Origin: Mycoplasmatota bacterium
Lineage (GTDB): Bacteria > Bacillota_I > Bacilli_A > Izemoplasmatales > Hujiaoplasmataceae
NCBI GenBank assembly: GCA_027859085.1
Contig: JAQIBJ010000077.1
Span: forward strand, 1 to 64,000
Direction of reading: 5' to 3'
Length of the DNA stretch: 64,000 nt
Part shown: positions 51,849 through 55,471 of the stretch, piece after piece
How positions within the stretch are numbered: position 1 is the stretch's first letter
Layout of the letters: each line of letters starts with the position of its first letter
Translations under genes and position numbers: made by a program
The notes under the pieces: generated by a model
The model's database searches: none
What the model saw: only the letters and a program-made list of their open reading frames with translations
Told to the model about the DNA's origin: nothing

Positions 51849-51866
51849 AGAAAGAGAGTGAATATA

Positions 51867-52862
51867 ATGAAAAAAATCGTATCCGGCATTAAGCCAACAG
51901 GTAGTTTAACATTGGGAAACTATTTAGGCGCAATCAAACAGTTTGTAAAATTACAAGAAGAAAGAAAAGAAGATGAATTTTATTTATTCATCGCTGATTT
52001 GCATGCAATTACCACAAGACAAACACCGCATGAATTAAGAAATAGAACTTTAGACATTGCTGCGATGTATATTGCCAGTGGATTGGATAAAGACAGAACG
52101 ACAATGTTTATTCAATCTGAGGTTTTACAACACGCTGAACTTGGTTACATCTTACAATCTAATGTCTACATGGGTGAATTAGAAAGAATGACTCAGTATA
52201 AGGATAAAGTAGCAAAAGGTGAAGAATCAATTGCCTCTTCTTTATTCACTTATCCAGCATTAATGGCAGCTGATATTTTGCTTTATGATGCTGATTATGT
52301 TCCAGTAGGCGATGATCAAAAACAACATTTAGAATTAACAAGAGATATTGCAAATCGTTTTAACCATTATTATAACGACTTTTTCACAGTTCCTGAACCA
52401 ATCATCCCTGAAGTTGGTGCAAGAATCATGGATTTACAAGATCCTTATAAAAAAATGTCAAAATCTTCAGATAACCCTAAAGGTTATATCACGATGTTTG
52501 ATGAGGAAAATATGATTAAAAAGAAAATCAGATCTGCTAAAACAGATTCTTTAGGTGTGATAAAATATGACCCTATTAATCAAACAGGTCTAGCAAATTT
52601 ATTAAACATCTATGCAAGTGCCACTGATACCAATGTTGAAGAAATTGTTCTAAAATATAAAGTTTCTAATTACAAAACTTTTAAAGAAGACTTAGGACAA
52701 GTCCTAGTTGACTTATTAATACCAATTCAAGAAAGATATCAAGACCTCATTAAGTCTGATTCGCTTCAAGAAATATTAAATCAAGGTAGAGATAGAGCAT
52801 CAGATTATGCATTCAAAAAAATGCGTAAATGTAAAAGAAAAGTTGGCCTTGGCCGTAAATAA
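51867..52862 (+). CDS. trpS: Tryptophanyl-tRNA synthetase
   Basis: SGIKPTGSLTLGNYLGAI, DLQDPYKKMSKSSDNPKG; Trp T-box upstream. Confidence 0.97.
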   Translation: MKKIVSGIKPTGSLTLGNYLGAIKQFVKLQEERKEDEFYLFIADLHAITTRQTPHELRNRTLDIAAMYIASGLDKDRTTMFIQSEVLQHAELGYILQSNVYMGELERMTQYKDKVAKGEESIASSLFTYPALMAADILLYDADYVPVGDDQKQHLELTRDIANRFNHYYNDFFTVPEPIIPEVGARIMDLQDPYKKMSKSSDNPKGYITMFDEENMIKKKIRSAKTDSLGVIKYDPINQTGLANLLNIYASATDTNVEEIVLKYKVSNYKTFKEDLGQVLVDLLIPIQERYQDLIKSDSLQEILNQGRDRASDYAFKKMRKCKRKVGLGRK

Positions 52863-52865
52863 GAA

Positions 52866-52892
52866 ATAAGACTATCGAATTGATAGTCTTAT
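52866..52892. terminator. Bidirectional terminator between trpS and the MFS gene
   Basis: ATAAGACTATC-gaatt-GATAGTCTTAT then ATTTTT. Confidence 0.65.
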
Positions 52893-52910: not shown

Positions 52911-54167
52911 TTATGCTTTTTGATTCATGTTTCTTCTTGTAAGCGCAGTAATCGAATATATAGCAATCATCACTGCACCAACAATCATAAATAATAATTG
53001 CAAACTATAATCTGCAAGTAATCCAATGAGTGGCGCAAAAATAACAAGTAAGAGAGATGTTAACTGTGCTTGAATACTTAAAGCACTGGCTCTTCTACCT
53101 TCTTCTGTCACATCACCAATTTCTTGAACCATAATTGGTCTTCTTAAATTCAAGATAATATACATTAATATAAATGCTACAAATATAACCACGATACTAT
53201 TCGTAAAGAAACCAAGTAAGAGAGAAACGCCACCCATTAATAGCCATGCTAAATTAATGGTTTTTACTTTATCGACTTTACCTTCAAGTTTATAAGCATT
53301 TCTAGTCGCTATCGCACTAATGATATAGATGATAGCATATATAACACCAATATAAACTTTTTCATTTTCTTCAGTATCTAATTGACTAAATAAAATAAAG
53401 CCCACTGACGCGGAAACTACTAACGGTTGAATATAATCTTTAACACTTTTGAATCCAGCTTGAAAAGCTGATGCATCGACTACAAAACCTCTAACTTTTT
53501 TCTTTTGGAAAACATATTTTAAACTTAACCAGTTTTCTTTCAAGAAATTTTTAAGTTTAAATTCATTTTCTTTTCTTTTATTCATATATTTTGGATAAGT
53601 CAAAATCATTAACAAATCAATGGAATATGGAATAATTGCCACTAAGAATAAATAATGATATTCTCCTTGTAACCAAAGAATTAATACAACAGAAATCAGA
53701 CTCATAATTGTTGAACCAATTAATGACATTGACCTTGTCTTGCCATACACTTCGCTTTTTGGTTCTTCTATTTCTTCTACATCTAAGAATTGCATAATCA
53801 TTGCTTTATGTGTACCAGATCTAAAAGCTTCACCAAAGCCGAATAATCCCATTGCAATTACAAAAATCCAAAATGTAGGTGCAATTCCCCCAAAGAAGAA
53901 AATAACAAACGAAGCAATATAAAATACAAAACACATAACAAGTTGTGTTTTCTTACCATACATATCGGCAATAACACCAGACGGTATTTCAACAATATAA
54001 ATGATGATTTCTCGAATGGATATCAATATACCAATTTGAAATAGATTTAGTCCTCCAACTTCCAAGAAGAATAAAATTAAAAAGGGTTCAAAAAAACGAA
54101 GGTTTTTTAAGAACCCATACATTCCAAATTTAAGCATTTGTCCTTTGTGTTGGTTAATACTAGACAT
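52911..54167 (-). CDS. MFS transporter
   Basis: 12 hydrophobic segments; EIPSGVIADMYGKKTQLV loop motif. Confidence 0.9.
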   Translation of the reverse strand: MSSINQHKGQMLKFGMYGFLKNLRFFEPFLILFFLEVGGLNLFQIGILISIREIIIYIVEIPSGVIADMYGKKTQLVMCFVFYIASFVIFFFGGIAPTFWIFVIAMGLFGFGEAFRSGTHKAMIMQFLDVEEIEEPKSEVYGKTRSMSLIGSTIMSLISVVLILWLQGEYHYLFLVAIIPYSIDLLMILTYPKYMNKRKENEFKLKNFLKENWLSLKYVFQKKKVRGFVVDASAFQAGFKSVKDYIQPLVVSASVGFILFSQLDTEENEKVYIGVIYAIIYIISAIATRNAYKLEGKVDKVKTINLAWLLMGGVSLLLGFFTNSIVVIFVAFILMYIILNLRRPIMVQEIGDVTEEGRRASALSIQAQLTSLLLVIFAPLIGLLADYSLQLLFMIVGAVMIAIYSITALTRRNMNQKA

Positions 54168-54169
54168 TA

Positions 54170-54436
54170 TTACATCATCTCATTAATATCAAAAATCACA
54201 CGAGAAATAGCTTTAAAAGCTTCATCTTCATCTTTTCCTGTAAAAGTAATTTTAATTTTGCTATTTGATGGAACACCTAAAGACAAAACACCCATAATAG
54301 ATTTAAGATTAACTTTACGGTCATTGTATTCCATATACATTTCAGCTTGGAAACTATTTGCTTTTGATACTATTTTTGTTGCTGGTCTTGCTTGTAGACC
54401 TTGTGTGTATGTTATTTTATACTTTTCTTCTATCAT
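54170..54436 (-). CDS. crh: HPr-like protein of Crh type (Gln15, Ser46)
   Basis: TQGLQARPATKIVSKAN with Gln in place of HPr His15; VNLKSIMGVLSLG retains Ser46; start MIEEKYK with TGGAGG. Confidence 0.88.
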   Translation of the reverse strand: MIEEKYKITYTQGLQARPATKIVSKANSFQAEMYMEYNDRKVNLKSIMGVLSLGVPSNSKIKITFTGKDEDEAFKAISRVIFDINEMM

Positions 54437-54449
54437 TGTTTTCCTCCAT

Positions 54450-54824
54450 CTATATTTCATTAATTTTTTGAACTAATTTATTCATATCATAAGGTAAAAC
54501 CATTTTAATATTATCCCCAGAAATAAAAATTCCTGTAGCGCCTAGCATTTTAAATCTCTCGATGTCGACTGCTTTAACATTGACCAAATTAACTTTTAAT
54601 CTTCTACCATCAATATCAGCATGATTAATATTTTTCATGCCCCCATAACAATCTATGAATTCATCAATCAATTCATCTTCGATTGGTTTAGAAATTACTC
54701 TAACTGGTTTTTTTTGTAATCTAAAAATTAAATAAGCACATAATAATAAAACGAATACAATTAATAACCACCAAAAATTATATTTAAACCAATTGAGCAC
54801 ATCACTCATAAAAAGTATATTCAC
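54450..54824 (-). CDS. Membrane-anchored glucose-type PTS EIIB-like protein lacking the active-site Cys
   Basis: CYGGMKNINHADIDGRRLKVNLVNVKAVDIERFKMLGATGIFISGDNIKMVL collinear with EIIB-Glc GG-x2-NI...DACITRLRV...LGAxGV; N-terminal TM. Confidence 0.82.
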   Translation of the reverse strand: MNILFMSDVLNWFKYNFWWLLIVFVLLLCAYLIFRLQKKPVRVISKPIEDELIDEFIDCYGGMKNINHADIDGRRLKVNLVNVKAVDIERFKMLGATGIFISGDNIKMVLPYDMNKLVQKINEI

Positions 54825-54964: not shown

Positions 54965-55471
54965 ATGTCAAAAATTACTGAAGCAATTATTGAAATCCCT
55001 ATGGGAACACAAAATAAATATGAAGTAGACAAATTAAAGAATCGTATTAAATTAAACAGAGTGTTATATTCTAAAATGACTTATCCTGCAGAGTATGGAT
55101 TTATTGAAAAAACTTTAGCGGAAGATGACGATCCATTAGACATTCTGGTTTTAGCCACCACACCGACTTTTCCTGGATGTATTGTCGATGCTAGAGTTGT
55201 CGGGTATCTTGATATGTATGATTCAGGCGAACGCGACCAAAAGATTATCGCAGTTGTTGATGCTGATCCAAGATTTGATGATATTAATGATATTAGTGAC
55301 ATTAAATCACTTCAGTTAAGAGAAATTAAACTTTTCTTCGAGAACTATAAAATTCTTGAGCCAGGACATCATGTAAAAGTTCTTGATTACTATTCAGAAG
55401 AAGACGCTGTTGAATTAATCGAAGAATGTCAAAAAAGATTTACAGAACACTTAACAAAACAATTAAAATAA
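54965..55471 (+). CDS. ppa: Inorganic pyrophosphatase (family I)
   Basis: EIPMGTQNKYEVDK, YPAEYGFIEKTLAEDDDPLDILVL; ATG 54965 after AGAGGTGA. Confidence 0.95.
   Translation: MSKITEAIIEIPMGTQNKYEVDKLKNRIKLNRVLYSKMTYPAEYGFIEKTLAEDDDPLDILVLATTPTFPGCIVDARVVGYLDMYDSGERDQKIIAVVDADPRFDDINDISDIKSLQLREIKLFFENYKILEPGHHVKVLDYYSEEDAVELIEECQKRFTEHLTKQLK

What the first reader, a model, noticed from the sequence alone, without database searches (positions are those of the whole stretch)
54170..54824. Adjacent HPr-like and EIIB-like proteins, both missing the phosphoacceptor residue
Seen: the HPr-like ORF from ATG 54436 has Gln at residue 15 (CAA, 54392-54394) in TQGLQARPAT and keeps Ser46 (VNLKSIMG). The upstream ORF is an N-terminally membrane-anchored EIIB-Glc-like domain that aligns without gaps to the GG-x2-NI...DACITRLRV motif, with Asp (GAT, 54609-54611) where the phosphorylated Cys should be. 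Known: in Bacillus, Crh carries Gln15 and acts only through Ser46-P as a CcpA co-effector. Inference: the pair is a PTS-derived regulatory module without phosphotransfer, with a membrane-tethered pseudo-EIIB possibly binding Crh/HPr. The MFS gene directly downstream may be a partner or target.
Basis: partly seen in the sequence, partly recalled or inferred. Interest (0 to 1): 0.8.

Follow-up and report, generated by a model that had tools for sequence, protein, structure and literature searches.

The report
Phosphate-blind HPr and membrane EIIB-like pair
In a genus of wall-less seabed bacteria that has lost its sugar phosphotransferase system, the carrier protein HPr has lost its phosphate-accepting histidine but kept its kinase-regulated serine, and it sits in an operon with a membrane-anchored EIIB-like protein that never carries the phosphate-accepting cysteine, occurs across the whole bacterial class, and survives even where HPr is gone.

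Summary
The window is from Candidatus Izemoplasmatales, genus Hujiaoplasma (cultured H. nucleasis zrk29 is a genus mate). All 5 genus genomes (two single-contig) have one HPr with Gln15, HPr kinase, and no Enzyme I, EIIC or EIIA-Glc. A second lineage without Enzyme I independently has Asn15; relatives with Enzyme I (or its N-terminal half) keep His15. So HPr here became Crh-like by convergence; it is not a Crh ortholog. The EIIB-like protein is different: ancient and class-wide. None of 92 homologs has the Cys (60% Asp/Glu; Arg/Lys at the Arg424 position in all). It precedes HPr in six families, yet persists in genomes lacking HPr, HPr kinase and EIIA-Glc, so it cannot be only an HPr partner. 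I infer a phosphorylation-blind membrane docking protein, like EIIB-Glc holding Mlc; partner unknown. The CcpA route is uncertain: key HPr-contact residues (Arg303/304, Tyr295) are lost in the CcpA-like protein of all 15 family genomes examined.

The parts
54450..54824 (-). TM-anchored, Cys-less EIIB-Glc-like protein (124 aa, GTG start); Asp72 at the Cys421 position, Arg75 at the Arg424 position
54609..54611 (-). GAT codon, Asp in place of the phosphorylated Cys
54170..54436 (-). HPr-like protein (88 aa), Gln15, Arg17, Ser46
54392..54394 (-). CAA codon for Gln15
54437..54452 (-). Junction: stop of the EIIB-like ORF followed by GGAGGAAA ribosome-binding site and ATG of HPr (tight coupling)
   Evidence: sequence
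52911..54167 (-). MFS transporter gene, start 2 bp after the HPr stop; same arrangement in genera g1, g6, g10 only
54965..55471 (+). Divergent inorganic pyrophosphatase gene (ppa), conserved syntenic flank
51858..52862 (+). Convergent trpS, conserved syntenic flank

Best explanation
Two separate things share an operon. (A) HPr: Hujiaoplasma lost PTS phosphotransfer; its only HPr lost His15 and is now a switch set solely by HPr kinase/phosphorylase at Ser46. It is Crh-like by convergence, derived from an ordinary orthologous HPr. Shown: gene content, residues, orthology by synteny. Inferred: Ser46 phosphorylation and its targets. (B) The EIIB-like protein is an ancient exapted EIIB domain on one TM helix. 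It cannot accept phosphate on Cys, usually carries Asp/Glu there next to a conserved Arg, and most likely serves as a phosphorylation-blind membrane docking site that holds a soluble partner at the membrane, as dephospho-EIIBGlc holds Mlc. Shown: anatomy, fold, distribution, loss of Cys, persistence without PTS parts. Inferred: docking; partner unknown. The frequent operon with HPr suggests a shared carbon-status response, with HPr possibly one client.
For: No EI in 5/5 genus genomes, no EIIC, no EIIA-Glc, one HPr with Gln15, HprK in 5/5 with intact P-loop GKSGIGKSE where read. Two genus genomes are single contigs; G004 has exactly the length of H. nucleasis zrk29, 1,808,583 bp. A second EI-less lineage (G011, G018) has Asn15 while genus mate G024 with EI has His15. 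Same ancestral locus by synteny. EIIB-like protein: 0/92 Cys, 55/92 Asp/Glu, 92/92 Arg/Lys at the Arg424 position; EIIB fold, best PDB hit EIIBGlc, TMt 0.81; true EIIBs split off with support 0.95; persists without HPr, HprK and EIIA-Glc.
Against: No binding or phosphorylation data. The docking role is by analogy only and no partner is identified. Absence calls in draft genomes can be assembly gaps. G049 has His15 HPrs although no EI was found. The CcpA-like regulator has lost key HPr-contact residues, so the output of the Ser46 switch is not known.
Confidence: 0.6

Rival explanations
1. One reading: the EIIB-like protein is a dedicated membrane tether for HPr/Crh, and the pair is one regulatory module.
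For: Adjacent, same strand, often with overlapping reading frames, in families f1, f3, f10, f12, f16 and f22; the linkage is kept in the genus after PTS loss.
Against: Kept in genomes with no HPr and no HprK (all 7 f13 and 5 f9 genomes tested, G043, G062, G162, G297), where it lies beside other genes. In the known PTS chain EIIB receives phosphate from EIIA, not from HPr (PMC9631020).
Confidence: 0.2
2. HPr-Ser46-P acts by the textbook route: co-repressor of the CcpA-like LacI protein, giving carbon catabolite repression.
For: A CcpA-like protein is in every genome of the genus and family searched, E=1.4e-57 to Bacillus CcpA; in G001 and G011 it is the only LacI-family match found; D69 and Y89 are kept.
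Against: R303/304, named the most important residue for HPr-Ser46-P contact in B. subtilis (PMC4591507), and Y295 are replaced in all 15 family-f1 genomes examined (K307 in most) but kept in 6/6 f3 genomes. Shifted basic residues (K/R300, K306) may compensate.
Confidence: 0.35
3. HPr-Ser46-P controls transport directly (inducer exclusion), with the co-transcribed MFS protein as target.
For: MFS gene follows HPr in genera g1, g6 and g10, 54-58% identical outside the genus; direct action of HPr-Ser-P on non-PTS permeases is known in lactobacilli (own knowledge, not tested).
Against: Linkage is limited to three genera; substrate unknown; nearest named models are weak matches to efflux transporters.
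Confidence: 0.15
4. Decaying PTS remnants without function.
For: Both active-site residues are lost.
Against: Open frames conserved across genera, Ser46 region and HprK intact, EIIB fold and Arg conserved in 92 homologs.
Confidence: 0.04

Closest known systems
Crh of Bacillus (HPr-like, Gln15, Ser46)
   Same: Gln at residue 15, Ser46 kept, HprK present; expected to be modified only at Ser46
   Different: Sequence is closer to HPr than to Crh (72 vs 60 bits); it replaces the only HPr, whereas Bacillus has both; arose within the family from a His15 ortholog
HPr (ptsH) of Bacillota
   Same: Fold, Arg17, Ser46 region, orthologous locus
   Different: His15 replaced; no Enzyme I
EIIB domain of EIICB-Glc (E. 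coli 1o2f, 3bp3)
   Same: Ungapped 75-aa homology and the same fold; Asn of the NI motif and the Arg conserved
   Different: No Cys; no EIIC; single TM anchor at the N-terminus
EIIBGlc-Mlc membrane sequestration (3bp8; PMC3901232)
   Same: Membrane-held EIIB domain able, in principle, to hold a soluble regulator
   Different: Cannot be switched by Cys phosphorylation; partner unknown

Membership tests
Crh | Gln (not His) at residue 15 with Ser46 kept | tested here: met
Crh | Orthology to Bacillus Crh | tested here: not met
   HPr scores higher than Crh in the PDB search; locus orthologous to His15 HPrs
Crh | Coexists with a His15 HPr | tested here: not met
   only one HPr in each of the 5 genus genomes
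HPr phosphocarrier | His15 phosphoacceptor and Enzyme I in the genome | tested here: not met
HprK/P target | Ser46 context KSIMG and an intact HPr kinase | tested here: met
HprK/P target | Phosphorylated at Ser46 by its HprK | not testable with these tools
   biochemistry needed
CcpA co-effector | CcpA partner with Ser46-P contact residues (R303/304, Y295) | tested here: not met
   possible compensating K/R300 and K306
EIIB-Glc | EIIB fold and sequence homology | tested here: met
EIIB-Glc | Phosphorylatable Cys | tested here: not met
   0 of 92 homologs
EIIB-Glc | EIIC and EIIA partners | tested here: not met
   none found in the genus
Mlc-type membrane sequestration | Binding of a soluble regulator by the membrane-held EIIB domain | not testable with these tools
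   no partner known

The most novel reading that the evidence does not exclude
A class-wide family of phosphorylation-blind, membrane-anchored EIIB-fold proteins works independently of the PTS as a docking or regulatory scaffold. It is retained in lineages that lost HPr, HPr kinase and EIIA-Glc, and HPr is only one of its genomic partners.
Probability: 0.5. Interest if true: 0.75.

Novelty: new variant of a known kind. Interest (0 to 1): 0.6.

Why it matters
The HPr part is a natural experiment: two lineages that lack Enzyme I each have a non-histidine residue 15, while Ser46 and HprK are kept, so the regulatory arm of HPr stands alone in a cultured bacterium (H. nucleasis zrk29). The EIIB-like part points to a very common, uncurated membrane protein across Mollicutes/Erysipelotrichia-type bacteria, including small-genome lineages in which no HPr, HprK or EIIA-Glc was found; its near-universal retention suggests an important function, and no description of it turned up in the papers searched.

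Tried and rejected
Crh orthology: rejected by scores and synteny. Recent decay of a PTS EIIB in this genus: rejected, since no homolog has Cys. EIIA-Glc as the general partner of the EIIB-like protein: rejected for many genomes, since EIIA-Glc is absent there. Textbook CcpA coupling: not accepted, because contact residues changed. A Pfam or NCBIfam family to name the EIIB-like protein: none above cut-off. Phage origin: no match in phage records. Promoter scan around the operon: no more hits than in shuffles. First attempt at search for related loci with the broad alignment failed for lack of a conserved stretch. The phylum-level scan added no other class. Literature searches found no description of a Cys-less EIIB family or of Gln15 HPr in this order; the library is open-access only.

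Full report
Observation. The three genes lie as described on the minus strand: EIIB-like 54824-54450, HPr 54436-54170, MFS 54167-52911. HPr residue 15 is Gln (CAA 54392-54394) and residue 46 Ser; the EIIB-like protein has Asp72 (GAT 54609-54611) at the Cys position. HPr matches PTS-HPr at 3.4e-25. The EIIB-like protein alone is below curated cut-offs, but its family profile matches E. coli EIIBGlc at 4e-14 over 75 residues without a gap. The predicted model (mean pLDDT 90.5) has one long N-terminal helix (2-37) followed by helix-strand-strand-helix-strand-strand-helix; the best PDB match is EIIBGlc 1o2f_B, TM-score 0.81 by target length, rmsd 1.9, with EIIB 3bp3 and the Mlc/EIIB complex 3bp8 among the next. 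HPr's ribosome-binding site directly follows the EIIB-like stop codon.

Organism. Named relatives are Candidatus Izemoplasmatales. Genome G004, same genus as the window, is one contig of 1,808,583 bp, exactly the published length of Hujiaoplasma nucleasis zrk29 (PMC10470597; taxonomy). G041 (1,958,905 bp, family f3 of the same order) has the length of Xianfuyuplasma coldseepsis zrk13 (PMC8397711). G001 corresponds to CP076020.1, strain zrk2. These identities rest on length or record match. Family and genus codes (f1, g1 and so on) are those of the search tool.

HPr. Each of the 5 genus genomes has exactly one HPr, with Gln15. Enzyme I (PF05524) is absent from all five, including the two single-contig genomes; PTS_EIIC is absent and EIIA-Glc is absent. 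HprK is present in all five, with an intact P-loop and signature in the two that I read. In the rest of the family the orthologous HPr has His15, except in G011 and G018 (Asn15), which also lack Enzyme I; G024, of the same genus as those two, has Enzyme I and His15. Among 44 extracted pairs, 7 of 8 without an Enzyme I match lack His15 and 0 of 36 with one do. Fisher's p is 2e-7, but the genomes are related, so the fair statement is two independent origins; G049 is an exception (no Enzyme I match, His15), possibly an assembly gap. Ser46 is kept in all 44: KSIMG or KSIIG in all but two f3 proteins, which read KSIMS and KSIMN. Synteny (ppa, trpS, pepF, spxA-like and GAPDH-like neighbours) shows that this is one ancestral locus within the family, and trpS, pepF and ppa are also near it in f3. 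By sequence the protein is closer to HPr than to Crh.

Enzyme I halves. Many His15 members of the family have, besides or instead of a full Enzyme I, a 225-260 aa protein with only the N-terminal half (PF05524 + PF00391, Ser-His of the active site kept, no PEP-binding PF02896); in genera g6 and g10 it lies next to what look like glycine cleavage genes. The genus of the window and G011/G018 lack this as well. So loss of His15 goes with loss of every Enzyme I-type partner.

Downstream of Ser46. A CcpA-like LacI protein is found in every genome of the genus; that of the window's genome matches Bacillus CcpA at 1.4e-57. Of ten positions I compared, six f3 genomes keep all ten. All 15 f1 genomes examined have replaced Tyr295 and Arg303 and carry Lys/Arg at 300 and Lys at 306. 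Arg303 in this chain numbering is taken to be Arg304 of PMC4591507, called there the most important residue for HPr-Ser46-P contact. The other positions on my list are from memory. The textbook CcpA route is thus unproven here and may be rewired. This change is family-wide and so predates Gln15.

EIIB-like protein. It precedes HPr in families f1, f3, f10, f12, f16 and f22, with reading-frame distances of about -45 to +60 bp apart from one long overlapping frame. Class-wide, a profile match is found in 353 of 395 genomes; this count includes true PTS EIIBs. Of 40 class loci inspected, 39 encode Cys-less proteins outside any PTS permease and one is a real PTS EIICB with Cys. In 92 sequences none has Cys at the site; 55 have Asp/Glu, all have Arg or Lys at the Arg424 position, 89 have the Asn of the NI motif. 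Because the loci were picked from the better matches, the percentages are not unbiased. True EIIBs form one group, support 0.95, on 69 columns and only five distinct sequences. HPr is absent from all seven f13 and all five f9 genomes tested and from G043, G062, G162 and G297, HprK is absent from the same genomes, and so is EIIA-Glc. All keep the EIIB-like protein. There it lies beside other genes, such as transketolase-like or RodA/FtsW-like ones by inspection.

Mechanism. For HPr: a Ser46-only switch, strongly supported by gene content, with target unknown. For the EIIB-like protein: phosphorylation-blind docking at the membrane. The acidic residue at the Cys site near the conserved Arg could mimic the phosphorylated state; this is inference. 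The precedent is dephospho-EIICBGlc binding and sequestering Mlc (PMC3901232). Binding to HPr remains possible where the genes are linked, but cannot be the whole function. The MFS gene follows HPr in genera g1, g6 and g10 only, among the loci examined.

Verdict. The finding splits into a convergent loss of PTS phosphotransfer in HPr, and a class-wide Cys-less EIIB family that deserves study on its own.

Noticed in passing
L095:3713-4393, L096:5215-5910, L097:5474-6145: Stand-alone Enzyme I N-terminal halves (PF05524+PF00391, active His kept, no PEP-binding domain) in many genomes of the family; a phosphate donor or sink for HPr without PEP binding is unexplained.
   Followed up: partly
L195-L199, L203-L212 versus L103-L108: The CcpA-like regulator of family f1 lost the HPr-Ser46-P contact residues Tyr295 and Arg303 and has Lys/Arg at 300 and Lys at 306, while family f3 of the same order keeps the Bacillus residues.
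   Followed up: partly
L162:1544-1921 (minus strand frame): G043 (99% complete) has no HPr, HprK or Enzyme I match but keeps the EIIB-like gene next to trpS, as at the ancestral place.
   Followed up: yes
families f6 and f17: Mycoplasma-like families show 93-138 aa frames, several with in-frame TGA, that match the EIIB-like profile; they may be further family members.
   Followed up: no
window 52866-52892: Strong stem-loop with T-tracts between the convergent trpS and MFS genes, a likely two-way terminator.
   Followed up: no
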